Source: an uncultured Sphingomonadaceae bacterium (lineage in GTDB: Bacteria > Pseudomonadota > Alphaproteobacteria > Sphingomonadales > Sphingomonadaceae). Taken from it: a stretch of 64,000 nucleotides of DNA. Shown here piece by piece: positions 7,850-64,000 of the stretch (the stretch's first letter is position 1; the number at the start of each line of letters is the position of its first letter). The stretch lies in contig CAIQHF010000021.1 in the NCBI GenBank assembly GCA_903871605.1, positions 1 through 64,000 on the forward strand. The letters are read 5' to 3'. Under the pieces are notes generated by a model. That model was given only the letters and a program-made list of their open reading frames with translations, did no database searches and had not been told where the DNA came from. The position numbers were made by a program, and so were the translations under genes.

Positions 7850-8340
7850 CGCTCCGCGCCGCTCGCCGCGCGCCATTCGCCCGAGCGGCCTCCGGTCTTG
7901 GCAAGCAGCCGGACGCCGCCGATCGTCATGCCGCGATCGACCGCCTTCGCCATGTCGTAAACGGTCAGCAGGGCGACCGAGACCGCGGTCATCGCCTCCA
8001 TCTCGACGCCGGTGCCGTGTGTGGTGCGCACCGTCGCGGTGGCGACGACGCCGTCCGCCTCGACGACGAGATCGAGCGTCACGCCCGAGATCGGCAGGGG
8101 GTGGCAGAGCGGGATCAACTCGGCGGTGCGCTTGGCTGCCATGATTCCCGCGACGCGCGCGACCGCGATCACGTCGCCTTTCTGGGCGGTGCCATCGCGG
8201 ATAGCGCTGGCCGCTGATGCGGACATGGTGATCTGGCCTGTCGCGGTTGCCTCGCGCAGCGTGGCAGGCTTGGCCGAGACGTCGACCATCCGTGCGGCAC
8301 CGGCGGCATCGAGATGGGTGAGATTGTTCCGCTGGTCCAT
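7846..8340 (-). CDS. moaC: Cyclic pyranopterin monophosphate synthase MoaC
   Basis: Converts the MoaA product into cyclic pyranopterin monophosphate, the first committed molybdopterin precursor. The 164-residue length is normal for the family. Seen motifs are [22 protein letters not shown] and the C-terminal KTGGRSGEW, which form the active site. The start chosen is the ATG at 8338-8340 (MDQRN); an ATG three codons upstream is possible. The gene runs into moeA with an ATGA overlap. The spacer of 112 bases to trpC carries a short hairpin (CGCACGG...CCGTGCG). Confidence 0.96.
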
Positions 8341-8452
8341 TCGTCTCACCCCAAATCATTCGCACGGGGCGAAACCGCCGTGCGCGATGCGAGCGCCGCG
8401 CCTGCAGCCCGTCGCTCGACGGTGCTCGGGACGGCCGGGGAGGGCGCGGCGT

Positions 8453-9244
8453 TCATGGCCCGGTGAGCAGAGACCGCGTCGCCGCCGCCACGTCCGCCTG
8501 TCGCATCAGCGTCTCGCCGACGAGGAAGCGGTGGATTCCCGCCGCCGCCAATCGATCGAGATCGGCCTTGGCGGCAAGCCCGCTCTCCGCGACGATCTGC
8601 GTGTCTGACGGCATGCGCTTGGCGAGCGCCTCGGTCCGGCCGAGATCGACCGAGAAATCGCGCAGGTCGCGATTGTTGACGCCGATCAGCGGCGACCTGA
8701 GACGCAGCGCGCGATCGAGCTCCGCCGCGTCGTGAACCTCGATCAGAACGTCCATTCCATGATCGATCGCGGCGGCTTCGATCTCGGTCATTGCGCCGTC
8801 GTCGAGCGCGGCGACGATGATCAGGATCGCATCGGCCCCGATCGCGCGCGCCTCGGCCACCTGCCACGGATCGACCATGAAATCCTTGCGCAGAACGGGG
8901 AGCGTGCAGGCGGCGCGCGCGGCGACCAGAAAGGCCTCGTCGCCCTGAAACCACGGCTTGTCGGTGAGCACCGACAGGCAGGCGGCGCCGCCGTCTTGAT
9001 AGGCGCGGGCGTGCGCGGGCGGATCGAAGTCCGCGCGGATCAGGCCCTTTGACGGGCTTGCCTTCTTGATCTCGGCGATCAGCGCATGGCCGGTCACGGC
9101 CTTGGCGGCGAGTGCTGCGGCGAAGCCCCGCGGCGGCGTCTGCGCGGCGATCGCGGCATCGAGCGCCGAGAAGGGGATGGTCGTGCGGCGACGACTCACC
9201 TCCGCGCGCGTCGCGACGAGGATCTTGTCGAGCACGGTGGTCAT
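8453..9244 (-). CDS. trpC: Indole-3-glycerol phosphate synthase
   Basis: Closes the indole ring in tryptophan synthesis. The 263-residue TIM-barrel product is a stand-alone TrpC, not fused to TrpF. Visible signature segments are [13 protein letters not shown] with the catalytic lysine, [20 protein letters not shown] and IVAESGL, followed by FLVGETLM at the phosphate-binding end. It lies downstream of trpD on the same strand; the 112-base gap between them holds a palindromic element. TrpF, TrpB and TrpA are not in the window. Confidence 0.97.
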
Positions 9245-51993: not shown

Positions 51994-54324
51994 CTAAAAA
52001 TGCACGGCTGCGCCCACGCGAACCATGCGTGGTCGCTGCGGCGTGACCTGATTGCCCGCCATCACGCCGAACGGATTGCCCAGCGCGAAGATATTGCCCC
52101 GCTCGTCGGCGAGGTTGGTCGCGTCGAGCGAGACGGCGACGCGCCCCAGCGAGACGCTCGCCCCCAGCGCCGTATCGAAATAGCGGCCTTGGTGCACGTC
52201 CAGCACCGTACCGACGCCGAGCCGCGATCGGCCGACATAGCGTATCGAACCCGATAGCTCGACCTGGTGTCCGGCCGCCTCGAACGTGTATCGGCTGCCG
52301 ATCCGACCGATCACATCCGCTATATTGGGCAGGCTGGCATCCTTCTCGCCCGCGAAAGCGGCCGCCGGGTTCGACAGGCGGCTGTTGTCGGCGAAGACCT
52401 GGCCGTCGACGACGAGTCCGGGGAGCGGTCGCCAGACCGCCTGCGCTTCGAAGCCGATGATGCGGCCCGTGCCGATGTTCGCGGTGTAGGGCAGGCCGTC
52501 GGCTTCGACCAGGTCGGCCTGGATATTCTCCCAATGCGTGAAGGAGATCGCCGCGCTCGCGCTCAGCCGGTCGGCCGGGCTGCCGTAGCGGATCCCCGTC
52601 TCGTAGGTCGAGACGCTGTCCGACTGGAAACGCTGGGTGACGCTGCCTTGCGTCGAGAGGCCGCCCGGGCGGTAGCCCTCCTCGTAGCGGCCATAGACCG
52701 CCAGCCGCGCCGTCGGCCGCCACAGCAGACCTGCCGACGGGAGCACGGCGGTGACGTGGCGATGGGGCTCCGAGGCGGTGTCCGCCTGGTCGAGCGCGTG
52801 ATCGATCAGCCGGGCATATTCGAACCGCGCGCCCGCCGTGACGAACCAGCGGTCCGCGAGCTTGAGCGTGTCTTCGCCGAACAGCGAGGCCTCCTCGGCG
52901 ACGTCGTTGGTGCCGGCGATGCGCGTGTCGGTGCCCGGCGCGCCGAGCGTGCGCGTCAGCCGCTCGCCGCTACGCAGAAGCTCGCCACCGATCACCCAGC
53001 TGCTGCCCGATCCATATTCGCGCGAGAGCCGAGTCTCGTTGGTCAGCAGCGTGATGTGGTTCATCTCCTGATAGAGACGCGGGGTCTGAGCGGTGAGGCT
53101 GGCGTCGTAGCTCGAGTTGACGTCGTGGCGCACGACCGAGCTTGCCGAGACCAGCTGCGCCAGCCCGATCGCGTGCCGGACCGTCACGCTGCCGAGCATA
53201 TAGTCGTTGTCGAAAGGCTGGGCGAGCACGCTCGATCGCTGCAGCGCGGGCAAGCCCCGCTCGGCATATTGGCCGTCGCGGCTGTTGATGCCTTGCACGA
53301 CAGCGCCGACGTCGATCGTCCAGTCGGCGGCGGGTCGATAGCGCAGCGTACCGCGGATGCCGCGCGTCGCGGTGCGGTTGATGTCTTTCGATCCGCGCGA
53401 GGGATCGTCGATATAGCCGCCGTCGCTATCGGCATAGCCGACGACGCGGAGCCCCAGCCGGTCGGTGTCGATCGGGAGGTTGAGGATCGCGGATACATCG
53501 CTGCCCGGCGCGCCATGCGCCTGGAGCGCACCCCCGGCGGCAAGATCCAGCGATGCCCGCGCCAGATCCGGGGCGACCGGAACCAGCCGGACGATGCCGC
53601 CCAGCGATCCGGCGCCGTAGAGCGCGCCCTGGGGGCCTTCGAGCACCTCGATCGATGCCATGTCGTAGATTGCGAGTTCGGGATCGGGCGCGTTGTAGTT
53701 GAGCCGAACCTCGCCCAGATATTGACCCACCGTCGCCTGTGTCGGGCCATTGAAGCTCGAATCGGCGACGCCGCGTATGAACAGCTTGTTGCGCCCCGGG
53801 CCGAGATGCGTCGACGACAGGATCGGGACCTGCGCGACCAGTGCCGCGGAACCGTGGACCAGCCGGTCGGGCCGGACCGAGCCGCCATCGACCAGCACGA
53901 CGCTGCCGATGTAGTTGCGCAGCGTCGCCGATCGCTTGCTCCCCGTCACGATGATATCGGGATCGGATCGCCGCGTGGCGAGCGGCGTGGCGGGCGCCGT
54001 CCGCCGGGGCGATCCCGAGCCGGACTTGCGTCGCACGAGCTCGAACGTCCTTGCGTCGATCTGCCGGAAATCCGCCGTCGTCCCGGCGAGAATCCGGCCG
54101 AGCGCCGCCGCGACGGTCATGCGCCCCCTGACCCCGTTGACCGCAAGCCCTGCGATCATGGGGTCGCTCAGGCCGATGGTGACGTTCGCCTGCGCGCCGA
54201 CCGCGATGACCGCGGACCGCAGCGCGCCGGGTGGGATGTCGAAGCGGGGCATGCGCACGGCGCCTGCGTGGCCGGCGGATGCCAGCACGAGAATCGCCGC
54301 AATGCCTGACCCGAACCGCCTCAC
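51994..54324 (-). CDS. TonB-dependent receptor with STN signalling domain (FecA type)
   Basis: A 776-residue outer-membrane receptor. After the signal peptide (cleavage near AVR, residue 24) comes an STN domain (DIPPGALRSAVIAVGAQANVTI, split across residues about 29-50), which contacts FecR, then the plug (PDIIVTGSKRSATL, FIRGVADSSFNGP, EVLEGPQGALYGAGSLGGIVRLV) and the barrel ending in VGAAVHF. With the adjacent fecR and fecI it forms a cell-surface signalling receptor that turns on its own synthesis when ligand binds. The initiating GTG overlaps the fecR stop (GTGA). Ligand unknown, perhaps a siderophore. Confidence 0.93.
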   Translation of the reverse strand: MRRFGSGIAAILVLASAGHAGAVRMPRFDIPPGALRSAVIAVGAQANVTIGLSDPMIAGLAVNGVRGRMTVAAALGRILAGTTADFRQIDARTFELVRRKSGSGSPRRTAPATPLATRRSDPDIIVTGSKRSATLRNYIGSVVLVDGGSVRPDRLVHGSAALVAQVPILSSTHLGPGRNKLFIRGVADSSFNGPTQATVGQYLGEVRLNYNAPDPELAIYDMASIEVLEGPQGALYGAGSLGGIVRLVPVAPDLARASLDLAAGGALQAHGAPGSDVSAILNLPIDTDRLGLRVVGYADSDGGYIDDPSRGSKDINRTATRGIRGTLRYRPAADWTIDVGAVVQGINSRDGQYAERGLPALQRSSVLAQPFDNDYMLGSVTVRHAIGLAQLVSASSVVRHDVNSSYDASLTAQTPRLYQEMNHITLLTNETRLSREYGSGSSWVIGGELLRSGERLTRTLGAPGTDTRIAGTNDVAEEASLFGEDTLKLADRWFVTAGARFEYARLIDHALDQADTASEPHRHVTAVLPSAGLLWRPTARLAVYGRYEEGYRPGGLSTQGSVTQRFQSDSVSTYETGIRYGSPADRLSASAAISFTHWENIQADLVEADGLPYTANIGTGRIIGFEAQAVWRPLPGLVVDGQVFADNSRLSNPAAAFAGEKDASLPNIADVIGRIGSRYTFEAAGHQVELSGSIRYVGRSRLGVGTVLDVHQGRYFDTALGASVSLGRVAVSLDATNLADERGNIFALGNPFGVMAGNQVTPQRPRMVRVGAAVHF

Positions 54325-55286
54325 CGGCTAGGCATTACCATTCGCCAGCCTTGAGGGGCATGCCGGATATCGATGCCCATTACCGCTGCCATGCGACGGA
54401 ACATCAGTGGTCGATCGGCATCGATCATCACCACGCCGCTGAACCGGTTCTGCGCGAGCGCCGGGTCGACCGCGATCGGCTCGCCGATACTGCGTGCGAC
54501 GTCCTGCGCGACATCGGAGAGCGGCGCGTCGCGGTAGAGCAGCCGGCCCGACCGCCATCCGCCGACCGCCGCGCTATCGATCGTCTCGACCGTGGCGCTG
54601 TCGTCGGCGATGCGCGCCGCCTTACCGGCATCGAGCCGCACCGCGGCACCGCCTGGATCGTACAGCACCGCGCCCTCGCGCACCGCGACCCGCGTCACTC
54701 CGGCACGGTGCGTAACATCGAAGGCGGTACCGACGTCCTGGAAGGTCGCGCCGCCCGCCTGCACCGCGAAGGGATGCGCGGCATCGTGGCGAACCGAGAA
54801 GAACGCCTCGCCCTGTTCGAGCACCGCGACGCGCCGATCATGGCGATCGAGACGAAGCCGGCTATCGCCGTTGAGGGCGATCGTCGTCCCGTCGAGCGTG
54901 ATGGAACGATGCTCGCCCGCGGCGGTCTGGACCAGATAAGGCTGCGCACCGCCTGGCAGCAGCGCCGGCACTGTGACAATCGCCGCGACGCCTGCCGCCA
55001 CCGCCATACCGAGGCCCGCGCCCCACCGCGACCAGCGACGGGACACGTTCCGCGGCTCGACGCCATTGTCGTTCGTGGGGACCGGCGAGACGGCATAGGG
55101 CTGCGGCGGCGCAAGACCCTCTGTCGCCTCGGCGATCAGCGCGCTCGCCTCGTCGAACGCGGCGAGATTGCGCGGATCGGCTTCGAGCCAGGCGGCGTGC
55201 GACGCCCAGTCGGTGAACGACGGATCGTGGAGGCGGCGCACCCAGTCGAGCGCCTCGTCGGTGCGCTCCCGCTCAGCGTTGGCCAT
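54321..55286 (-). CDS. FecR-family anti-sigma regulator
   Basis: A 321-residue single-pass protein. The cytosolic N terminus carries the DUF4880-type segment (EALDWVRRLHDPSFTDWASHAAWLEADPRNLAAFD, split across residues about 10-45), then a membrane helix (about 92-112), the FecR domain (YLVQTAAGEHRSITLDGTTI, DVGTAFDV) and a C-terminal STN-like part (LSDVAQDVARSIGEPIAVDP). It relays occupancy of the receptor to the sigma factor. It overlaps both neighbours by a few bases, so the three genes act as one unit. Confidence 0.92.
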   Translation of the reverse strand: MANAERERTDEALDWVRRLHDPSFTDWASHAAWLEADPRNLAAFDEASALIAEATEGLAPPQPYAVSPVPTNDNGVEPRNVSRRWSRWGAGLGMAVAAGVAAIVTVPALLPGGAQPYLVQTAAGEHRSITLDGTTIALNGDSRLRLDRHDRRVAVLEQGEAFFSVRHDAAHPFAVQAGGATFQDVGTAFDVTHRAGVTRVAVREGAVLYDPGGAAVRLDAGKAARIADDSATVETIDSAAVGGWRSGRLLYRDAPLSDVAQDVARSIGEPIAVDPALAQNRFSGVVMIDADRPLMFRRMAAVMGIDIRHAPQGWRMVMPSR

Positions 55287-55833
55287 CGATGCGCTCCCTG
55301 CCGGCAGGCGTCGGATCATTGCCGTCGGCCAGCGCACGCTGCGCGGCGGCGATTGCGCGATAAGCCTTCTGAAGATGTTTCTCGACCGCGCTCAGCGAGA
55401 TGCCGAGCTCGACGCCGATTTCGCGCTGGCCGATTTCGTCGACACGGTGTCGGCGAAAGACATATTCGGTGCGCGGCCCCAGCCCCGCCAGAACGCGATC
55501 GATCTGACGCAACCGCTCGCGGCCGATCAGGATCCGCTCGGCGGCCGGTGCGTCGTCGGCATCGCCGTCGCCGCCCTGGATATCCTGGCGATAGGACAGT
55601 TCGCGACCCTGGCGACGGTGTGCGGCGCGATAGTGGTCGAGCATCAGATTGTGCGCCATGCGGTAGAGATAGGGAAGGGCGTCGCCGACCACGTGATCGG
55701 TGCTGGCCTCGACACGGATCCACATTTCCTGGAGGCAGTCCTCGGCATCGTCACCGGCGCCGCGTGCGCGCAGATAGCGGAGCAGCGGCGACTGGTTGGC
55801 TATGAAAGCCTCCGCGAGGGCGCTGCCGGCCAT
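55273..55833 (-). CDS. FecI-type ECF sigma factor
   Basis: A 186-residue sigma-70 family protein: region 2 (LLRYLRARGAGDDAEDCLQEMWIRV), then ALPYLYRMAHNLMLDHYR, and region 4 (REIGVELGISLSAVEKHLQKAYRAI). It should direct RNA polymerase to the receptor operon. The ATG at 55831-55833 is chosen for family length; the frame is open about 100 codons further upstream without family-like sequence. Its stop overlaps the fecR start by 14 bases. Confidence 0.92.
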   Translation of the reverse strand: MAGSALAEAFIANQSPLLRYLRARGAGDDAEDCLQEMWIRVEASTDHVVGDALPYLYRMAHNLMLDHYRAAHRRQGRELSYRQDIQGGDGDADDAPAAERILIGRERLRQIDRVLAGLGPRTEYVFRRHRVDEIGQREIGVELGISLSAVEKHLQKAYRAIAAAQRALADGNDPTPAGRERIDGQR

Positions 55834-56342
55834 GCTCTGGTCGTTCCCGATCACCGATGTTCGCCAAGCGTAAGCGCTTGTCGTGCGCGTCGTAAAGCGC
55901 ATCGTCGATCGTTGTGCAACGTCGATCGCGAGCGCGCCGCCAGCGGTGGCGACATCGCCGCGATGCGGCCCGGTATCGCACGCAAGCCGATCTCCGGGCC
56001 ATCCGGGACGACTGCCGGATGGTTGCCGACCACTGCGCGCGGCCGATGTTCGCAGCGCAACGGCAGCGTCGCCGAAACCGACGCTGTCACGCGCAGATTG
56101 CAAAGACAGGCGAGCGAACATAGCCAGATAGCCCTTCATGGTCGTTCCCGTCGACCATCGCTTTGGCCGCGTCGGCGGCCATCACGCCTAAGGACGCCGG
56201 CCGCTCGCTCGACCCGCAACACAGGTGCAAAAGTCGCAAGCTGCGGTGTCGCGATCCCCTGCGCGGACGCCACAGCGGTCGCCGCGGGATCGCTGCGGGA
56301 TCGCGGCCGGTGCGACGTCTCTCGACATCGTCGATCGTGACG
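55834..56342. other. Intergenic region between the sigma-factor gene and the orphan gene
   Basis: About 510 bases with no gene that can be supported. It contains a perfect eight-base-pair hairpin (CCATCCGG at 55999-56006, CCGGATGG at 56015-56022) and a near-palindrome around CGTTGTGCAACG (about 55909-55920) close to the sigma-factor start, which could be an operator. Divergent promoters for both sides must lie here. Confidence 0.4.
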
Positions 56343-56894
56343 ATGGAGAAGGATCAGGCCGAAATGGCAGCGGAAGCGCTCCCGGTCACCATCGCGCGCG
56401 ATGGCGATGGCCGGGTCACGTATATCGACGTCCACGCCAAGCCGCCGCGAAGAAAATGGCGCGACGGTCAACCGTCCGAGGAGATGGCGGCCGCGTTCGA
56501 GAATTTCTACGGCATGACGACTGGGCGACTGCGATACAGCCAAGTCGCGGCGATGCTTGAGTATCGCTCGTTCGGGATCGCCTGTTCGGCGCATATCCTT
56601 GCCGGCCAGACCCAGGACGCGCGCCAGCTCTTTGCGCGACTGATCGCCGCCTTCGTCGCCAGGGACGGGACGATGGCACGCGATGTGCGTCGCTATCAGG
56701 CGGCGATCGAGCGACGCGGATCGCATGGCGACGTCCGCGATTGCGCGCAGTTCGAACAGATTGCGGCATTTTGCCGGCAGGCCTGCGCGATGCTGTCCGA
56801 GCAGGGCATAACGCTGAAGGGGCTCGGCTTCATCGGCGCCGGCGATCTCGGCGCAGCCCGCGTGCCGCCGCGGCACGACGCGATCCGGCACTGA
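56343..56894 (+). CDS. Orphan hypothetical protein
   Basis: A 183-residue soluble protein starting MEKDQAEMAAEALPVTIARD. Its first 40 residues read like a small beta-strand domain (ARDGDGRVTYIDVHAKPPRRKW), the rest is helical with three cysteines (FGIACSAH, VRDCAQ, FCRQACAM). No signal peptide, membrane segment or known motif was recognised. It lies 160 bases before the hemolysin-family cluster on the same strand and might be its first gene, but there is no overlap to prove it. Confidence 0.6.
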   Translation: MEKDQAEMAAEALPVTIARDGDGRVTYIDVHAKPPRRKWRDGQPSEEMAAAFENFYGMTTGRLRYSQVAAMLEYRSFGIACSAHILAGQTQDARQLFARLIAAFVARDGTMARDVRRYQAAIERRGSHGDVRDCAQFEQIAAFCRQACAMLSEQGITLKGLGFIGAGDLGAARVPPRHDAIRH

Positions 56895-57054
56895 GGAAAC
56901 GCGGGCGCCGACCGTCGCGGCGGGCGGCGCGACGCGCCGAGGCAAAGCTGACGGCGCCGCGGCACGCTAACCGCACCGCACGCCACCGAAATAAATTGCC
57001 TGCGGATTTTGGGCACCAACACCGTCTGGTTTGCGGACCATCTGGAGTATGTCG

Positions 57055-57603
57055 ATGCGCCCCACCGTCTCCGCGAACTTCGCTCGTCGCCTGTACCGAC
57101 GGCACCATGGCGCCGATATCTGCCCAAGCTACCTGAGCTGGCGGACGGTCAACGCCGCCGACGGCAGGCCGCTCGCGGTGCTCGGTTATCGCGCCGCCGC
57201 GGATGGGCCGCTGTTTCTCGAATCCTATCTCGCCGGCCCGATCGAAACGGTCGCAGCCGAGCGGCTGGGGATGGACGTCGGCCGTGGCGATATCGTCGAG
57301 ATCGGCTGTCTCGCCGCATTGCCCTCGCCCGCATTGGTCCGGCTGTGGCACGGCTCGGCGACCGCGCTCGGCGACCGGTTCAGCGTCGCGGTCGCGACAC
57401 TGACCGCTCCGCTACGCCGCGGTTTCGCGCGCGTCGGATTGCCGATTGTGCCGATCGCCCCGGCAACGCGTGGGCAGCTTGCCGGCAAGCGCGAGAATTG
57501 GGGGCGCTATTACGATCAGGACCCGGTCGTCTGCGTCGGGATCATCGCCGACGGCGCGCTGGCGCTGTCGCGCTACGCCGCACGGCTGGACGCGCACGCA
57601 TGA
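57055..57603 (+). CDS. Thermostable-hemolysin family protein
   Basis: A 182-residue protein matching the Thermostable hemolysin family (PF12261) by layout: an N-terminal tyrosine/arginine stretch, SYLSWRTVNAADGRPLAVLGYRAA, LFLESYLAGPIETV and DIVEIGCLAALPSPALVRLW. No signal peptide and no pore-forming features are visible. The beta-strand/ADGRPLAVLGYR pattern recalls acyltransferase (GNAT-like) folds more than a toxin; that reading is my inference. GGAG seven bases before the ATG at 57055 decides the start; an ATG at 57049 is alternative. The stop overlaps the next gene's ATG. Confidence 0.85.
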   Translation: MRPTVSANFARRLYRRHHGADICPSYLSWRTVNAADGRPLAVLGYRAAADGPLFLESYLAGPIETVAAERLGMDVGRGDIVEIGCLAALPSPALVRLWHGSATALGDRFSVAVATLTAPLRRGFARVGLPIVPIAPATRGQLAGKRENWGRYYDQDPVVCVGIIADGALALSRYAARLDAHA

Positions 57604-59639
57604 GCACGCTGACCGCGCTGATCGAGCGCCGAGCGATCCAGGATCCCGATGCGGTCGCACTCGTATCGCGTGGCGAGATGATCTCCTATGCGGCGCTTCC
57701 GATCGCCATCGGCGCGATGGCGTCACGGCTCGAGTCGAGCGATCCGAGCGGGCGTCCGGTCGGTATTCGGCTCGGCAACGGGATCGACTGGATCCTCGCC
57801 GACCTCGCGCTCGCCAGGCTCGGTCGCGTCGCCGTGCCGCTGCCGTCCTTCTTCCTGCCGGCGCAGAGCGAGGCGGCGCTCGTCGATGCCGGCGCGTCCG
57901 CGGTTCTCGAGCCCGAGGGATTGCGCCTGCTCGACGCGCCGCCGGCGACGCTGCCGCACGGCACCGCCAAGATCAGCTACACCTCGGGCTCGACGGGTGT
58001 GCCCAAGGGCGTCTGTCTGTCGGAGGCGCAGCTTCTGGCGACCGCGCAGGCGGTGGTCGATCGACTCGGTGCGGAGAGTGCGGGGCGGCACCTTCCCGTC
58101 CTCCCGCTCGGCGTGCTGCTCGAAAATGTCGCGGGTCTCTATGCCAGCCTGCTCGCCGGGGGTGCCTATCTGGCCGAGGACAGCACAAGCCTGGGCCTCG
58201 CCGATCCGTTCCGGCCGGATTTCGCCGTCTTGGCCGAGGCCGTGGCGGCGCATCGCGCGACCAGCCTGATCCTCGTGCCGGAGTTGCTGCGCGGCCTGGT
58301 CGCCTATCTCGAGACCTCCGGACGGCGACTGCCTACGCTCGCGCTCGTCGCGGTTGGCGGCGCACGCGTCCCGGTGAGCGTGCTGATGCGCGCGGGAGCA
58401 GTCGGCCTGCCGGTCGTGCAGGGCTATGGCCTGACCGAATGCGGCTCGGTCGTCGCGATCGAGGCGCCCGGCGAGCCGGAGCGCGGCAGCGTCGGCACGC
58501 CGCTCGGGCACGTCTCGGTCTCGATCGCCGACGATGGCGAGATCGTCGTCGACGGCAACGGCCATCTTGGTACGGTGGGCCATCCGCGCGCGCCGGGCCC
58601 TATCGCCACCGGTGATATTGGCCGCGTCGATGCGGCTGGGCGACTGACGATTTCGGGGCGCAAGACCAACCTGATCGTCACGGGCTACGGCCGCAACATC
58701 TCACCCGAGTGGATCGAGAGCGAATTGCTCGCGCAGCCGGAGGTCGTGCAGGTGATCGTCCATGGCGACGGCGAGGCGGCGCTGGCGGCACTGATCGTCC
58801 CAGCCTCGGCGACGACCGATCCGGCGCCGGCGGTCGCGCGCGTCAATGCCGGCTTGCCGGCCTATGCGCGGATCGCCAGCTGGCAGCTCAGCCGGCCGTT
58901 CCTCCCTGTCGACGGAACACTGACCACCAACGGCCGCCCGCGTCGTGCGGCGATCCTGGCACGGCAGGCGGCGCTGCCCTTCTTCGACCGGCTCGTGATG
59001 CAGACCGCCGAGGCGCGCGGGCGCCTGCAGGCGGTGCCGCAGCTCCAGGCGGGGCTCAAGGGGCAGATCGGACTGTCGACCTATCTCGCCTATCTTGCGC
59101 AGGCCTATCATCACGTCCGCCATACCGTGCCGCTGATGCAGGCGGCACGCGCAGGGCTCGCCGATCGGCTCGATCTGGTCGCGGCGCTCGACGATTACAT
59201 CGCGGAGGAGACCGGCCATGAGCATTGGATCCTCGACGATATCCGCGCGGCGGGCGGCGATCCCGACGCGGTTGCGGCGTCCACCCCGGCGCCCGAGACC
59301 GCCGCGATGGTCGAGCATGCCTATCGCACGATCCGCGAGGGCAATCCGGTCGCATTCTTCGGGATGGTCTTCGTCCTCGAAGGCACCAGCATCGCGCTCG
59401 CCCAGCAGGGCGCGGAAGCGGTGCGCAGCAGCCTCGGTCTGCCGCCCGAGGCGTTTCGCTACCTCACCTCGCACGGCGCGCTCGACCAGGAGCATATGCG
59501 CTTCTTCGAGCGGCTGGTGAACCGGCTGGACGATCCCGCCGACCAGCTGGCGATCCTCGCCATGGCCAACCGGATCTTCGATCTGTTCGCCGCAATCTTT
59601 GCGGGCATACCGATGGAGCACTCGCATGAGCTCGCTTGA
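57600..59639 (+). CDS. AMP-dependent acyl-ligase fused to a heme-oxygenase-like diiron-type domain
   Basis: A 679-residue two-domain protein. Residues 1-455 are an adenylate-forming ligase: SYTSGSTGVPKG (127-138), GYGLTECG (275-282), TGDIGRVD (337-344), SGRKTNLIVTGYGRNISPEW (352-371). At the usual catalytic-lysine position of motif A10 the sequence is TTNGRPRR (442-449), with Arg446 in place of Lys. Residues about 485-675 are an all-helical TenA/heme-oxygenase-like domain with E537xxH540, E594 and D629/H632 placed like the metal ligands of diiron oxidases of the UndA/HDO type. Activation of an acyl substrate followed by oxidation is the simplest reading. It overlaps the preceding gene by four bases and the next by 14. 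Confidence 0.88.
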   Translation: MSTLTALIERRAIQDPDAVALVSRGEMISYAALPIAIGAMASRLESSDPSGRPVGIRLGNGIDWILADLALARLGRVAVPLPSFFLPAQSEAALVDAGASAVLEPEGLRLLDAPPATLPHGTAKISYTSGSTGVPKGVCLSEAQLLATAQAVVDRLGAESAGRHLPVLPLGVLLENVAGLYASLLAGGAYLAEDSTSLGLADPFRPDFAVLAEAVAAHRATSLILVPELLRGLVAYLETSGRRLPTLALVAVGGARVPVSVLMRAGAVGLPVVQGYGLTECGSVVAIEAPGEPERGSVGTPLGHVSVSIADDGEIVVDGNGHLGTVGHPRAPGPIATGDIGRVDAAGRLTISGRKTNLIVTGYGRNISPEWIESELLAQPEVVQVIVHGDGEAALAALIVPASATTDPAPAVARVNAGLPAYARIASWQLSRPFLPVDGTLTTNGRPRRAAILARQAALPFFDRLVMQTAEARGRLQAVPQLQAGLKGQIGLSTYLAYLAQAYHHVRHTVPLMQAARAGLADRLDLVAALDDYIAEETGHEHWILDDIRAAGGDPDAVAASTPAPETAAMVEHAYRTIREGNPVAFFGMVFVLEGTSIALAQQGAEAVRSSLGLPPEAFRYLTSHGALDQEHMRFFERLVNRLDDPADQLAILAMANRIFDLFAAIFAGIPMEHSHELA

Positions 59640-60381
59640 GAGGGCGCGCATCGTCGTCACCGGCGCTGCGGGCGGGATCGGATCGCAGGTCGCGGCCAAG
59701 TTGCGGCTCGCCGGCGCAATCGTCACCGGCGTCGACCGCGTTGCCTGTCCGGCCTGTCACAGCTCGATCGACGCCGATCTCGGCAGCCAGGAGGGGCTCG
59801 CGGCGATCGCGGCGACGCTGGCCGCAGCCGAGTGCGACATCCTCGTCAACCTCGCGGGCGTGCAATATTTCGGGCCCCTGGCGGAGCAGACGCCGGCGTC
59901 CTTGTGGAGCGGCTATGTCGTCAACCTGATCGCGCCGGCGATGCTGGTGCGTGCGGTGCTGCCGGGCATGCTGGCGCGCCGTCATGGTCGCATCGTCAAT
60001 ATCGGGTCGGTGTTCGGCGCCATCCCCTTCGCGCATTTCGCCAGCTATTCGAGCGCCAAGGCGGGGCTCAAGGGATTGTCCGACGCGCTGCGCCGCGAGG
60101 TTGCCGGCACCGGTGTCGAGGTGACGCACATCGCGCCGCGCGCGGTCCGCACTGCGCTCGCCTCGCCCAAGGTGATGGCGTTCGCCGCGGCGACCGGCAT
60201 GCACATGGATGCGCCCGACGCGGTCGCCGCTCGCATCGTCGCGGCGATCGCCAGCGGCACTGCCAATCTCGTGATCGGCTTTCCCGAAAGCCTGTTCGTC
60301 CATCTCAATGCGCTTGCCCCCCGGCTCGTCGACCGCGCGCTTGCCGCCAACGATCGCAAGGCGGCCGCGCTGTTCCGCTAG
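59626..60381 (+). CDS. Short-chain dehydrogenase/reductase
   Basis: A 251-residue classical SDR: cofactor motif TGAAGGIG (12-19), NLAG, catalytic Ser128, and Y141SSAK145. The acid residue after the second strand (VDR) suggests NAD preference over NADP. It is coupled to the ligase-fusion gene by a 14-base overlap, so the substrate is probably that protein's product. Confidence 0.92.
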   Translation: MSSLERARIVVTGAAGGIGSQVAAKLRLAGAIVTGVDRVACPACHSSIDADLGSQEGLAAIAATLAAAECDILVNLAGVQYFGPLAEQTPASLWSGYVVNLIAPAMLVRAVLPGMLARRHGRIVNIGSVFGAIPFAHFASYSSAKAGLKGLSDALRREVAGTGVEVTHIAPRAVRTALASPKVMAFAAATGMHMDAPDAVAARIVAAIASGTANLVIGFPESLFVHLNALAPRLVDRALAANDRKAAALFR

Positions 60382-60429
60382 CCGCCGCGCAGCGCGTCTC
60401 TCATTTCCTCAGCAGAAACGGACCCGATC

Positions 60430-61098
60430 ATGTCCCTCCGCCCTCGTCTCGCCATCGCGTCGCTCTTCGCCCTCGCATTCGCCGCGACCGCCCCGGCGGG
60501 TGCCTCGAACAATCCGGCGATGGACGCCGACGTCTCCCGGATCGACAATGAATGGGCGCGCATCAAATATCAGGTGAAGGACAAGGACGCGCAATATCGC
60601 CAGATCGACGCGCTCGCCAAGCAGGCGGCGGCGGTCGTGGCGCGCTATCCCGGCCATGCCGAGCCGCTGCTGTGGCAGGGCATCGTCACCAGCGAGGAGG
60701 CGGGCATGGCGAGCATGTTCCAGCAGCTCGGCTATGCGAAGGCCGCGCGCGCGATCCTCGACCGGGCGGCCGCGATCGACCCCAAAGCGATGAACGGCGG
60801 TGTGCCGATGAGCCTCGGCGTGCTCTATTACCGCGTGCCGGGCTTCCCGATCGGCTTCGGCAGCACCGAAAAGGCGCGGACGCTGCTCAAGAACGCGCTC
60901 GCCATGGACCCCGGCGGGCTCGACTCGAACTATTTTTACGGCGACTTCCTGCACAGCCAGGGCGATGACCGCGATGCGATCACCTATCTGCAGCGTGCGC
61001 TGCAGGCGCCGGCCAATCCGCACCGGCCGGTCTGGGACGCGGGGCGTCGCGCGGATGTCCGCGCCGAGCTCGCCAAGCTCCAGAAGCACGCCGGTTGA
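60430..61098 (+). CDS. Exported TPR-type protein
   Basis: A 222-residue protein with a signal peptide (cleavage near AGA, residue 26) and helical repeats of TPR type (AEPLLWQGIVTSEEAG, AILDRAAAIDPKA, TLLKNALAMDPGG, YLQRALQAPANP). A periplasmic scaffold role within the cluster is likely. It starts 48 bases after the SDR gene. Confidence 0.85.
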   Translation: MSLRPRLAIASLFALAFAATAPAGASNNPAMDADVSRIDNEWARIKYQVKDKDAQYRQIDALAKQAAAVVARYPGHAEPLLWQGIVTSEEAGMASMFQQLGYAKAARAILDRAAAIDPKAMNGGVPMSLGVLYYRVPGFPIGFGSTEKARTLLKNALAMDPGGLDSNYFYGDFLHSQGDDRDAITYLQRALQAPANPHRPVWDAGRRADVRAELAKLQKHAG

Positions 61099-61117
61099 TC
61101 CGCGCAGGGGATCGCCG

Positions 61118-61816
61118 GTGACGATCTGGCACCGATTCGGTCGGCAGTTGCGCGAGCCGTCGGGCTGGGCCGGACGGCTGACCGGTCACTTCATGCGTCT
61201 CGTCAATCGCGCGCCCAATCGGCTTGCGGTCGCGGCGCTCGATCTGACGCCTGACGCGCATGTGCTCGAGCTCGGCTTCGGGCCCGGCGAAGCGATCGCC
61301 GCGCTGGTCGATCGTTTGCCGGATGGCGTGATCGAGGGCATCGACCGGTCCGCCGCGATGCTTGCCCAGGCCTCGCTGCGCAATCGTGCCGCCGTGCAGG
61401 CGGGGCGCGTGCGGCTGCGGCTCGGTGACTTCGCCAGCCTCCCTTATGCCGACGCTTCGTTCGATGCCGTGCTGGCGATCAACATCGCCTATTTTTGGAC
61501 GGATGCGAGCGCTGCCGTGCGCGAGATCAGGCGCGTGCTCAAACCGGACGGCCAGCTGGTGCTTTATGCGACCGACGCGCGTTCGATGCGGCGCTGGAAG
61601 TTCGCCGGTCCGCAGACGCATCGCCTGTTCGATCTCAACGCATTGCGCGTGGTGCTCCTCGCCGGCGGATTTCGCCCGGATAACATCACCATCAGCAAGC
61701 GGCGGCTCGGTGCGAACATCGTCGGCCTGGTCGCGCGGGCCCGAAATGCGACGACGTTTGTTCGACAGATTGCCGATCGACCCGGCACGCTGACCGAATG
61801 GGGACTGCATGGCTGA
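61118..61816 (+). CDS. SAM-dependent methyltransferase (class I)
   Basis: A 232-residue methyltransferase with motif I VLELGFGPGEAIAAL, EGIDRSAAML as the acidic ribose-binding loop, and FDAVLAINIAYFWTD as the post-motif. It falls in the Methyltransf_11 group; the substrate may be a lipid or quinone. The initiating GTG at 61118 follows AGGGGAT; its stop overlaps the next gene by eight bases. Confidence 0.9.
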   Translation: MTIWHRFGRQLREPSGWAGRLTGHFMRLVNRAPNRLAVAALDLTPDAHVLELGFGPGEAIAALVDRLPDGVIEGIDRSAAMLAQASLRNRAAVQAGRVRLRLGDFASLPYADASFDAVLAINIAYFWTDASAAVREIRRVLKPDGQLVLYATDARSMRRWKFAGPQTHRLFDLNALRVVLLAGGFRPDNITISKRRLGANIVGLVARARNATTFVRQIADRPGTLTEWGLHG

Positions 61817-62366
61817 TCAGGCGATATCCAGCGCGAACGGGGGCGGGCCACGATGCCTGCGGCGGCGTCTGATCTGGCTGCTGCCTCTGCTCGCCGGCGG
61901 TTGCACGGCGGTCCCGCGCGACGTCGCCGCGCCGCGTCCCGCGCCGCATTTCGCCGTCGAGGCGTTCTTCGCGGGGCATAGCGAGGGGAGCGGGACGCTC
62001 AAGCTGATCTTTTCGCGCGCGCGATCGGTGACGGTACATGGCAATGGCCGTCTCGCCAGCGACGGCACGCTGATCCTCGACCAAAATGTGATCGATGCTG
62101 CCAAGGCGCCCAAGCAGCGCGAATGGCGGATCCGACGCGTCGCGGCCGATCGCTATGCCGGCACGCTCAGCGATGCGAGCGGGCCGGTCAGCGGCGACGT
62201 GACGGGCAACCGCCTCCATCTCCGCTTCACGATGAAAGGTGGCCTAGCCACCGACCAATGGTTGTCGTTGCGGGCGGACGGGCGGATCGCGGACAACATC
62301 ATGGTCGTGCGCAAATTCGGCGTCACGGTCGCCACATTGCATGAAACGATCCGCAAGGTCGATTGA
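61809..62366 (+). CDS. DUF3833-type lipoprotein
   Basis: A 185-residue predicted lipoprotein: signal with lipobox LLAGGC (Cys32), then FAVEAFFAGHSEGSGTLKLI and a strand-rich body (LILDQNVID, WRIRRVAADRYAGTLSDASGPVSGDVTGNRLHLRF, split) that matches the DUF3833 pattern. The family is of unknown function and is often found beside SDR and methyltransferase genes. It overlaps the methyltransferase gene by eight bases. Confidence 0.82.
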   Translation: MADQAISSANGGGPRCLRRRLIWLLPLLAGGCTAVPRDVAAPRPAPHFAVEAFFAGHSEGSGTLKLIFSRARSVTVHGNGRLASDGTLILDQNVIDAAKAPKQREWRIRRVAADRYAGTLSDASGPVSGDVTGNRLHLRFTMKGGLATDQWLSLRADGRIADNIMVVRKFGVTVATLHETIRKVD

Positions 62367-62400
62367 GCATGGTGGGGGACGGTCAGGGAGAGGATGCCAC

Positions 62401-63015
62401 ATGAGCGAAGCGAGATCACAGCCGGTCAGCGTCGAGCGTGCCGCGGATGGCCGCCGGGTCGTGACCTATTATTCCACTGTCGCGGTGACGCTGCACTGGC
62501 TGATCGCGGTGATGATCCTGTCCAACATCGTCCTCGCCTGGTTGCATGAGGACGTATCGAGCGCGACATCGGCGCGGCTGATGCTGTGGCATAAGTCGAC
62601 CGGAATCCTCGTGCTGCTGCTCAGCCTTATGCGGCTGGCATGGCGCGTCGCGTACCCCGCGCCGCCTTACCCGGCGGGTCTTCCGGCATGGGAGCGGACC
62701 TCGTCGCGGATCGTGCACTGGGGTTTCTATGTCATCATGATCGGCATGCCGCTCACCGGCTGGATCATGACGTCGGGCCCGAGGACCAAGGCGGCGCTGA
62801 TGCTCTACGGCGTCGTGCCCTGGCCGATGCTCGGCTTCGTCCACGGTGCGCAGGGGCAGGCCGCGGCGGTCTGGCACGCCGTCGGCGAGACGCACGGCGT
62901 GCTCGCCTATCTCGCCTATCTGCTGATCGTGCTCCATGTCGGCGCGGCGCTGAAGCACCAGTTCCTCGATCGCGACGTGATCATGGCGCGGATGATGCCG
63001 TGGATGCGGCGATGA
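62401..63015 (+). CDS. Cytochrome b561-family membrane protein
   Basis: A 204-residue protein with four hydrophobic helices (VAVTLHWLIAVMILSNIVLAW onwards, split) and histidines placed for two b-type hemes (VTLHW, LWHKS, IVHWGFY, LHVGAALKH). It would pass electrons across or within the inner membrane. The start is the ATG at 62401; its stop overlaps the VIT1 gene start (ATGA). Confidence 0.92.
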   Translation: MSEARSQPVSVERAADGRRVVTYYSTVAVTLHWLIAVMILSNIVLAWLHEDVSSATSARLMLWHKSTGILVLLLSLMRLAWRVAYPAPPYPAGLPAWERTSSRIVHWGFYVIMIGMPLTGWIMTSGPRTKAALMLYGVVPWPMLGFVHGAQGQAAAVWHAVGETHGVLAYLAYLLIVLHVGAALKHQFLDRDVIMARMMPWMRR

Positions 63016-63716
63016 GCCGCGCGTATCGCCCGCATCACGAGCACCACATGTCGTCGAGGATCGGCTGGCTGCGTGCCGCCGTTCTCGGTGCCAATGACGG
63101 GATCATCTCGGTCTCGAGCCTGGTCGTCGGCGTCGCCGCCTCGTCGGCGGGCCGCAGCGCCGTCATGCTCTCGGGCATCGCCGCGCTGGTCGCCGGCGCG
63201 ATGTCAATGGCGGCGGGCGAATATGTGTCGGTCAGTTCGCAAGCCGATGCGGAGGCCGCCGATCTTCAGGTCGAGCGCCGCGAGCTGGAGGATGATCCCC
63301 AGGCGGAGCGCGCCGAACTCGCCGCCATCTATGTCGAACGTGGCTTGTCGGCCGAACTGGCGAACCAGGTCGCCGACCAGCTTACTGCGGCCGACGCGCT
63401 CGCCGCCCACGCGCGCGACGAACTCGGCATGTCCTCGGCGACGCGGGCGCGGCCGGTCCAGGCCGCGCTGGCATCGGCGGCCGCGTTCACCAGCGGCGCA
63501 TTCATACCCGTCCTCGTCGGAGCGCTGCTGCCGCGCGCGACGATTTCCTACGGCGTGTCGATCGTGGCGGTGGCGTTGCTGGCGGTGCTCGGTGCGATCG
63601 GTGCGACGGCCGGTGGGGCGGGGCGCGTCAAGGCGATCATCCGCGTCACCTTCTGGGGTGCCGCCGCGCTGCTGGTAACGGCCGTCATCGGTCATTTCGC
63701 CGACGCGACCGTCTGA
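63012..63716 (+). CDS. VIT1/CCC1-family iron or manganese transporter
   Basis: A 234-residue membrane protein with the family start LRAAVLGANDGIISVSSLVVG, then GAMSMAAGEYVSVSSQADAE, and three C-terminal helices. The middle acidic helical segment (VERRELEDDPQAERAEL) is the metal-binding region of this family. It exports iron or manganese from the cytosol. It overlaps the cytochrome gene by four bases. Confidence 0.92.
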   Translation: MSRAYRPHHEHHMSSRIGWLRAAVLGANDGIISVSSLVVGVAASSAGRSAVMLSGIAALVAGAMSMAAGEYVSVSSQADAEAADLQVERRELEDDPQAERAELAAIYVERGLSAELANQVADQLTAADALAAHARDELGMSSATRARPVQAALASAAAFTSGAFIPVLVGALLPRATISYGVSIVAVALLAVLGAIGATAGGAGRVKAIIRVTFWGAAALLVTAVIGHFADATV

Positions 63717-63803
63717 GCACCGCCATGCCAAGATCCGGCTCGCCTCGAGGCCGAGAGACTTGTATTGTGAACGCGCCCGTCTTGCCGGATTGGGACCGAT
63801 ATC

Positions 63804-64000
63804 ATGTCTAGCTGTGTTCGGCGTCGCTATTTGGACCTGCTCGGGTCGATCTATATCTACAACGAGCATCGCGGCTACACGGCGATCGATCGGGTCATCG
63901 AGGTCGCGAAACGTCGTGCGCCGCAAGATCTGCATTTCATCGCGGCGCTGACACAGCATCGCGCCGACGAGCGCAAGCATTACGACATGTTTCGTCGCTG
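63804..64000 (+). CDS. Ferritin-like protein, cut by the right edge
   Basis: The frame is open from the ATG at 63804 to the end of the window, giving 65 residues (YLDLLGSIYIYNEHRGYTAID, IEVAKRRAPQDLHFIAAL, then ADERKHYDMF). The ExxH pattern in DERKHY and the preceding helices resemble a ferritin or rubrerythrin-like diiron fold, which would fit a partner for the iron transporter next door. The rest lies outside the window, so the call is provisional. Confidence 0.55.
   Translation, partial: MSSCVRRRYLDLLGSIYIYNEHRGYTAIDRVIEVAKRRAPQDLHFIAALTQHRADERKHYDMFRR

What the first reader, a model, noticed from the sequence alone, without database searches (positions are those of the whole stretch)
57055..64000. 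Uncharacterised acyl-activation, redox and iron-handling cluster at the right end
Nine plus-strand genes, most overlapping by 4 to 14 bases, encode a thermostable-hemolysin family protein, an AMP-ligase/heme-oxygenase-like fusion, an SDR, an exported TPR protein, a methyltransferase, a DUF3833 lipoprotein, a cytochrome b561, a VIT1-type metal transporter and a ferritin-like protein. The overlaps are seen in the sequence. The families are known, but the pathway is not one I can name. My reading is that an acyl substrate is activated, oxidised by a metal enzyme, reduced and methylated, with membrane electron transfer and iron supply nearby. The 'hemolysin' label probably does not describe its job here.
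Basis: partly seen in the sequence, partly recalled or inferred. Interest (0 to 1): 0.85.

Follow-up and report, generated by a model that had tools for sequence, protein, structure and literature searches.

The report
'Hemolysin' operon with its own receptor
A bacterial gene labelled as a blood-cell toxin looks instead like an enzyme in a widespread small-molecule pathway that, in many alphaproteobacteria, appears to be switched on together with its own outer-membrane receptor; what the pathway makes is not yet known.

Summary
The nine genes exist but are not one conserved cluster. The first four (T_hemolysin; AMP-ligase fused to a heme-oxygenase-like oxidase, HDO; SDR; exported TPR) carry a core conserved in order: all five families in 109 of 121 loci. 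The last four genes recur in only 2-7 of 121. In alphaproteobacteria the core travels, in three arrangements, with an ECF sigma factor, FecR and a siderophore-type TonB receptor; 35 linked receptors, the window's included, form one clade. One ECF-type promoter motif precedes the hemolysin gene (31 of 47) and fecR (29 of 35), but 0 of 71 gamma/beta hemolysin genes. In gamma/betaproteobacteria a PmrA/QseB-like two-component system is linked instead, with a matching box upstream (22 of 34). The hemolysin profile matches a LuxI-like acyltransferase family (probability 93%); with the same ligase clade it recurs beside TauD oxygenases in Streptomyces and Pantoea. Best reading: the 'hemolysin' is an N-acyltransferase making a secreted amphiphilic compound, perhaps a metallophore or signal. 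Product, substrates and fold are not shown.

The parts
51994..54324 (-). TonB-dependent receptor, siderophore type, with a weak N-terminal STN signalling domain; dedicated receptor of the operon
   Evidence: Pfam TonB_dep_Rec_b-barrel 2.2e-28, Plug 1.1e-7, STN 9.9e-4 below cut-off; NCBIfam TIGR01783 3.4e-33, below its cut-off; PDB FyuA, FpvA, CntO/FoxA; one clade with 34 other operon-linked receptors
54321..55337 (-). FecR anti-sigma factor; the true start is probably nearer 55286
   Evidence: FecR 4.1e-17, DUF4880 2.6e-6; start position is inference
55273..56139 (-). ECF sigma factor (FecI-like); sigma domains lie at residues 115-262, so the true start is probably about 55840
   Evidence: Sigma70_r2 3.6e-9, Sigma70_r4_2 3.2e-9; start position is inference
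57000..57026 (+). ECF-type promoter motif CTGNGG-N17-CGTC, 28 bases before the ATG at 57055
57055..57603 (+). T_hemolysin family protein; proposed N-acyltransferase
   Evidence: PF12261 E 5e-34; profile match to TIGR03694 acyltransferases
57600..58946 (+). AMP-ligase domain with Arg instead of Lys at motif A10 (residue 446)
59013..59639 (+). Heme-oxygenase-like diiron oxidase domain, fused to the ligase; E537 H540 E594 H625 D629 H632 invariant in the alignment
   Evidence: PF14518 2.4e-27; 39 of 39; ligand roles recalled from known HDOs
59626..60381 (+). SDR oxidoreductase
   Evidence: conserved position
60430..61098 (+). TPR protein with a signal-peptide-like N-terminus (by eye), TatT/BstC-like
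   Evidence: PGAP name of the Novosphingobium homologue 'TRAP transporter TatT component'
61055..61816 (+). SAM-dependent methyltransferase (start 61055 or GTG 61118); sixth gene in 28 of 80 named loci
61809..62366 (+). DUF3833 lipoprotein; adjacent, not part of the conserved system
62341..63015 (+). cytochrome b561-type protein; adjacent, not conserved (7 of 121 loci)
63012..63716 (+). VIT1-type metal transporter; adjacent, occasional neighbour elsewhere (6 of 121 loci; also Pantoea deleyi and Variovorax plasmids)
63804..64000 (+). start of a DUF455-like gene that ends at 64577 outside the window; not conserved (2 of 121)

Best explanation
The conserved unit is a biosynthetic operon for a secreted, probably amphiphilic small molecule. 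Proposed order of steps: the ligase activates a carboxylic (fatty) acid; the 'hemolysin', a GNAT/LuxI-like N-acyltransferase, joins the acyl group to an amine; the fused diiron domain and the SDR oxidise and reduce the product; the methyltransferase caps it in many Sphingomonadales; the exported TPR protein carries it in the periplasm. In alphaproteobacteria the product, possibly as a metal complex, is sensed or taken up by a co-inherited TonB receptor that acts through FecR and an ECF sigma factor; that sigma factor would drive both the operon and fecR from one promoter motif, as in siderophore cell-surface signalling. In gamma/betaproteobacteria a PmrA/QseB-like two-component system would take this role. 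The hemolysis reported for vibrio homologues would then come from the product, not from a protein toxin. Shown by computation: gene order, linkage, receptor clade, shared motifs, remote profile similarity. Inferred: every reaction, the identity of the product, metal binding, and which regulator binds which motif.
For: Core order: all five families in 109 of 121 loci. Independent draw by PF12261: 40 of the 41 loci have the ligase beside the hemolysin, 39 the HDO. Hemolysin profile of 134 sequences against TIGR03694 exosortase-associated acyltransferases: 93.0% probability, E 3.4e-7; non-GNAT decoys 0.1-0.4%; the invariant Glu82 falls on the Glu of their 'EISR' motif. Same hemolysin-ligase pair next to TauD oxygenases in 6 of 11 annotated plasmid records opened, in natural-product settings with exporters, ketosynthases or nitrosuccinate lyase, and in Serratia 39006 with an exporter (passage of PMC4046660); ligases of both types form one clade, support 0.998. 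Receptor: 35 linked receptors one clade, support 1.0, in three arrangements. FecR is otherwise sparse: 39 in 8 genomes of about 32.6 Mb, yet 4 of the 8 have one within 6 kb of the operon. Motif: 31 of 47 hemolysin genes, 29 of 35 fecR, 0 of 47 ligase, 0 of 48 SDR, 0 of 34 methyltransferase, 0 of 34 receptor genes; 0-2 of 47 in shuffles; 0 of 71 gamma/beta. When TPR sits on the other strand (L158) it has its own site. The four loci with only a fecR site and the receptor directly upstream on the same strand (L134, L135, L139, L193) fit read-through. Gamma/beta: box in 22 of 34 with the linked system, 4 of 17 without, shuffles 0-2. Published: activity in lysate and supernatant without a signal peptide (passage of PMC4046660 citing Fallarino 2002).
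Against: No structure could be predicted. Against LuxI itself the hemolysin profile scored only 11.4%, FeeM 0.4%, OlsB-type 29.6%, and no single member hits a GNAT Pfam family significantly (best FeeM E 0.12). The ligase has Arg where class I adenylate formers have a fully conserved Lys (107 of 119), so acyl activation itself is unproven. In the window no fecR site is found and the strict motif also occurs elsewhere in the window (7 matches, 1.4 expected), so a match alone means little. 16 of 47 alpha loci lack the site before the hemolysin gene, L132 lacks both, and 8 of 41 named alpha loci show no ECF or FecR (three of them on short contigs). 20 of 72 gamma/beta loci lack the RR and HK pair. 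Metal binding rests on receptor similarity below NCBIfam's cut-off.
Confidence: 0.58

Rival explanations
1. The operon makes a membrane aminolipid (ornithine-lipid-like or N-acyl amino acid) that remodels the envelope under iron or cationic stress; the TPR protein moves it to the outer membrane and the receptor only senses the envelope state.
For: The hemolysin profile also leans to OlsB-type acyltransferases (29.6%); the gamma/beta regulators are closest to PmrA and QseC/PmrB, known regulators of envelope lipid change (recalled); the TPR protein's nearest named non-designed relative is the sterol carrier BstC (E 1.6e-8; PDB 1.3e-8).
Against: A co-inherited siderophore-type receptor fits a released ligand better. 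TauD-type relatives sit beside MFS exporters in 4 of 6 records opened.
Confidence: 0.25
2. T_hemolysin is a genuine protein cytolysin and the neighbours modify or export it.
For: Named for hemolytic activity of vibrio homologues (passages in PMC4046660 and PMC6474259).
Against: No signal peptide is reported for it; it sits first in an operon of cytosolic enzymes in a wide range of free-living bacteria; remote GNAT similarity; occurrence in Streptomyces biosynthetic neighbourhoods.
Confidence: 0.08
3. A general fatty-acid uptake or activation locus without a dedicated product.
For: A transposon mutant in the V. cholerae ligase VCA1110 changed use of C13:0 (passage of PMC12208996).
Against: Dedicated oxidase, acyltransferase and co-inherited regulators; patchy distribution (1 of 60 near relatives, the window's own genome; 78 of 398 in the phylum); A10 Arg.
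Confidence: 0.08

Closest known systems
Vibrio 'dth' / delta-thermostable hemolysin region (VCA1110-VCA1111; VP1729-VP1735)
   Same: Hemolysin beside the ligase DthC (table passage, PMC12208996); in V. parahaemolyticus hemolysin VP1729, iron-containing redox enzyme VP1731 and a QseC-type kinase VP1735 (passages, PMC10469919). A 'thermostable hemolysin cluster' with the same genes is noted in Methylophilaceae (passage, PMC10872708).
   Different: The papers seen treat it as a virulence factor or give no function. The window version has ligase and oxidase fused, a methyltransferase, and an ECF/FecR/receptor unit.
Exosortase-associated acyltransferase (TIGR03694) and LuxI, FeeM, OlsB relatives of the GNAT superfamily
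   Same: Remote profile similarity, conserved Glu in the same place.
   Different: Very low identity, shorter, not recognised by any curated GNAT model tried.
Heme-oxygenase-like diiron oxidases (CADD, MboA, AetD, PDB 3dde)
   Same: Family PF14518; sequence matches to 3dde 3.6e-22, CADD/CT610 1.2e-5, MboA 0.0063, AetD 0.25.
   Different: Fused to or beside an AMP-ligase; substrate unknown.
Siderophore cell-surface signalling (FpvA/FpvR/PvdS, FecA/FecR/FecI; recalled)
   Same: TonB receptor, FecR, ECF sigma factor; shared motif before biosynthetic and fecR genes.
   Different: No NRPS, no known siderophore synthetase; ligand unknown.

Membership tests
GNAT / LuxI-like N-acyl synthase | GNAT fold | not testable with these tools
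   structure prediction switched off
GNAT / LuxI-like N-acyl synthase | Detectable homology to a curated GNAT family | tested here: inconclusive
   93.0% to TIGR03694, but 29.6% OlsB-type, 11.4% LuxI, 0.4% FeeM; no significant Pfam or NCBIfam GNAT hit
GNAT / LuxI-like N-acyl synthase | Conserved Glu of the E-x-S-R strand | tested here: met
   Glu82 invariant in 41 of 41 and in 7 of 7 added sequences; aligned to the EISR Glu
Heme-oxygenase-like diiron oxidase | Three His and three carboxylate ligands | tested here: met
   39 of 39; ligand roles recalled, not from a call
Class I adenylate-forming enzyme | A3 P-loop and A5/A8 motifs | tested here: met
   most motif positions conserved in 106-119 of 119
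Class I adenylate-forming enzyme | A10 catalytic Lys | tested here: not met
   Arg 107, Lys 9, Ala 2, gap 1 of 119; 15 of 16 other ligases aligned have Lys, one a gap; Lys 'fully conserved' per passage of PMC6122825
FecI/FecR cell-surface signalling system | Linked ECF sigma, FecR and TonB receptor | tested here: met
   window; all three in 29 of 41 named alpha loci, ECF or FecR in 33 of 41
FecI/FecR cell-surface signalling system | N-terminal signalling (STN) domain on the receptor | tested here: inconclusive
   STN E 9.9e-4, below cut-off; FpvA match covers the N-terminus, residues 7-264
Siderophore/metallophore cluster | Product that binds iron or another metal | not testable with these tools
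   needs isolation of the product
Siderophore/metallophore cluster | Dedicated TonB receptor co-inherited with the biosynthetic genes | tested here: met
   35 of 35 linked receptors in one clade, support 1.0, against 30 of the 49 receptor hits of the same genome and 4 unlinked neighbours

The most novel reading that the evidence does not exclude
The whole 'thermostable hemolysin' family is not a toxin family but a class of acyltransferases that work with one clade of Arg-A10 ligases and interchangeable iron oxygenases (HDO or TauD) to make a new class of amphiphilic metallophores or signals, sensed in alphaproteobacteria by a co-inherited TonB receptor and in gamma/betaproteobacteria by a PmrA/QseB-like system.
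Probability: 0.35. Interest if true: 0.88.

Novelty: new variant of a known kind. Interest (0 to 1): 0.72.

Why it matters
T_hemolysin genes are still listed as virulence factors in genome papers (for example passages of PMC4601865 and PMC6474259). If they encode a biosynthetic enzyme, those lists are misleading, and a cassette found in 78 of 398 sampled genomes of the phylum has an unknown product. The co-inherited receptor and the promoter motif give direct handles: they predict which regulator to delete to switch the operon, where to look for the product, and what should bind it.

Tried and rejected
Rejected: the nine genes as one pathway. Rejected as uninformative: PDB sequence search with the hemolysin profile (one chance hit, E 2.6); NCBIfam on the hemolysin (no meaningful hit); sigma-70 promoter scan (0 found, 0.8 expected) and terminator scan (1 found, 3.4 expected). 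The first, shallow profile comparison (41 sequences) gave only 6.6% to LuxI and 0.2% to FeeM; the match to TIGR03694 needed the deeper alignment (134 sequences) and compares single pairs, so its E-value is not corrected for a database. For the flanking-gene families, 4004 ORFs were cut to 1411 by a codon-position G+C filter before clustering; the later counts used profiles built from those clusters on all ORFs. The ECF motif was first found in 39 hemolysin upstream regions and then counted with one letter relaxed, so the hemolysin count is partly circular; the fecR sites were not used to find it. Single motif matches outside the expected places also occur (1 of 37 ECF genes, L142; 1 of 71 gamma/beta ligase genes, L174). 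The gamma/beta box was counted in 51 of 72 loci with a usable upstream stretch; its exact form CTTAA-N6-CTTAA is in 16 of 34, 1 of 17, and 0 of 46 alphaproteobacterial windows. Isonitrile or nitrosation chemistry was considered because of TauD and nitrosuccinate lyase neighbours in Streptomyces, but those genes are not shown in the window's type. VIT1 and cyt b561 do recur beside the operon in single cases; this was not tested against a base rate. Fallarino 2002 is not held and is known here only through citing papers. Papers were seen as listings and passages only, none in full. Ten paper searches, all in the held open-access library, showed no paper that links this family to acyl transfer or to the receptor; subscription papers are not covered.
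Full report
What is there. The window is the plus strand of a 72.7-kb contig of a 4.28-Mb genome. The finding's nine genes exist; Pfam confirms the families of the first eight, while the ninth, which leaves the window, has only a sub-threshold DUF455 hit. Four of eight junctions are overlaps of 4-14 bases.

A conserved core. Two sets of loci were read: 40 places (plus the window) chosen from the 80 hits of the family PF12261 in 398 genomes of the phylum, and the best 80 of 154 relatives of the ligase-oxidase fusion among public genomes. In these 121 loci all five core families are present in 109: 38 of 41 named alphaproteobacterial, 7 of 8 unnamed alphaproteobacterial including the window, 35 of 39 named and 29 of 33 unnamed gamma/beta loci. 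The order hemolysin, ligase, HDO, SDR, TPR dominates; a few loci swap SDR and TPR, and some are cut by contig ends. In the family-based set, which was not chosen by the ligase, 40 of 41 loci have the ligase and 39 the HDO. The methyltransferase follows the core on the same strand in 28 of 80 named loci, most of them titled Sphingomonadales. DUF3833, cyt b561, VIT1 and the ninth gene lie near the core in 2, 7, 6 and 2 of 121 loci, the window counted in each. Pantoea deleyi and Variovorax plasmids also show VIT or cytochrome neighbours, so these may be occasional partners, but they are not part of the conserved unit. The operon is patchy: 1 of 60 near relatives, the genome itself, has the hemolysin gene.

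The enzymes. The HDO domain keeps three His and three acidic residues in 39 of 39 sequences, the pattern I recall for heme-oxygenase-like diiron oxidases; its nearest solved relatives are 3dde, CADD, MboA and, weakly, AetD. The ligase keeps motifs A3, A5 and A8 but has Arg in place of the A10 Lys in 107 of 119 sequences. A passage of PMC6122825 calls that Lys fully conserved; 15 of 16 other ligases aligned, 15 of them from the same genome, have it and one has a gap. This is a consistent property of the clade, not decay, and it leaves the activation step uncertain. The TPR protein's best named non-designed relative is the sterol carrier BstC.

The 'hemolysin'. Single sequences hit only PF12261. 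A profile of 134 members compared with small profiles of GNAT families gave 93.0% probability and E 3.4e-7 with exosortase-associated acyltransferases, 29.6% with OlsB-type, 11.4% with LuxI-type and 0.4% with FeeM-type proteins, and 0.1-0.4% with two unrelated families; GNAT families among themselves gave 93-99%. The invariant Glu82 lies on the Glu of the EISR strand.

A second kind of cassette. Of 12 plasmid records opened, 11 carried annotation. Three have the HDO-type core. Six have hemolysin, ligase and a TauD dioxygenase in a row: four Streptomyces and two Pantoea. Two have neither (Methylosinus, Rhizobium). The Streptomyces settings include ketosynthases, gamma-butyrolactone regulators, efflux pumps and, in S. 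goshikiensis, a nitrosuccinate lyase above its curated cut-off (801.8 against 650 bits). In Serratia sp. ATCC 39006 the hemolysin homologue sits with a TauD protein, an AMP ligase and a Bcr/CflA exporter, and was the most strongly changed gene in an rsmA mutant (passage of PMC4046660). Ligases of both kinds form one clade, support 0.998, apart from 16 other ligases, and 7 of 7 TauD-type ligases have the A10 Arg. The hemolysin-ligase pair therefore behaves as a biosynthetic module with interchangeable iron oxygenases.

Regulation and receptor, alphaproteobacteria. On the minus strand just upstream, the window has an ECF sigma factor, a FecR protein and a TonB receptor. Such genes are linked to the operon downstream on the same strand (21 loci), upstream divergently (8 and the window) or upstream on the same strand (5). 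FecR genes are few: 39 in eight operon-bearing genomes of about 32.6 Mb, yet 4 of the 8 genomes have one within 6 kb of the operon. All 35 linked receptors form one clade with support 1.0, against 30 of the 49 receptor hits of the window's genome and four unlinked receptors in the same loci; the window receptor scores 275-409 bits to the others in the clade and at most 146 to receptors of its own genome. By sequence it is nearest to siderophore receptors.

A search of 39 upstream regions gave TGAGG-N17-CGTC in 21, shuffles at most 4. With the form YTGNGG-N17-CGTC the site precedes the hemolysin gene in 31 of 47 loci and fecR in 29 of 35 (both in 23 of 35), against 0 of 47 ligase, 0 of 48 SDR, 0 of 34 methyltransferase, 0 of 34 receptor, 1 of 37 ECF and 1 of 49 TPR genes; 0 of 71 gamma/beta hemolysin genes; 0-2 of 47 in shuffles. 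The one TPR case is L158, where TPR lies on the opposite strand and has its own site. Four of the five loci with the receptor unit upstream on the same strand have the site only before fecR, as read-through would need; the fifth, L132, has none. The window has the site at 57000-57026 but none before fecR. That the linked ECF factor reads this motif is inference.

Regulation, gamma/betaproteobacteria. A response regulator nearest PmrA and a kinase nearest QseC are linked in 32 of 39 named and 20 of 33 unnamed loci; a cupredoxin and an FTR1-type permease in 18 and 6. A CTTAA-type direct repeat, the kind of box I recall for PmrA and QseB, lies upstream of the hemolysin gene in 22 of 34 loci with the system, 4 of 17 without, 0-2 of 34 in shuffles.

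Interpretation. A conserved enzyme set, a remote acyltransferase signature, recurrence in natural-product settings, and a co-inherited, apparently co-regulated siderophore-type receptor fit a secreted acylated product better than a protein toxin. A passage of PMC4046660, citing Fallarino 2002, says the V. cholerae protein showed haemolysis in lysates and supernatants without a signal peptide, which a membrane-active small molecule would explain. Whether that product binds metal, signals, or both is open; a membrane aminolipid is the main rival.

Noticed in passing
window 56293-56319 and 56343-56894 (+): A second strict promoter-motif match lies 23 bases before an ORF of 183 codons with no Pfam hit, between the ECF gene and the operon; a possible further member of the regulon.
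   Followed up: partly
L158 11306-12873 (-): In a Caulobacteraceae contig TPR and methyltransferase lie on the opposite strand and TPR has its own ECF-type site.
   Followed up: yes
L279 7451-18447: Streptomyces goshikiensis plasmid: amidase, hemolysin, ligase, TauD, methyltransferases, FAD protein and nitrosuccinate lyase beside ScbA/ScbR regulators; an uncharacterised candidate for N-N bond chemistry.
   Followed up: partly
L280 1-5690: Novosphingobium pentaromativorans pLA3 has a second FecR/TonB receptor pair and an autotransporter upstream of the operon.
   Followed up: no
L071 about 7983-8621: A second hemolysin gene in genome G095 stands without ligase or HDO, before a radical SAM/DUF3641 gene.
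   Followed up: no
L208 15640-16365 and 20 further loci: A secreted protein family without Pfam or NCBIfam match follows cupredoxin and FTR1 in gamma/beta loci.
   Followed up: no
L008 8552-11473 (contig 64552-67473): Downstream of the window: multicopper oxidase, Cu/Zn superoxide dismutase and DUF2141 genes.
   Followed up: no
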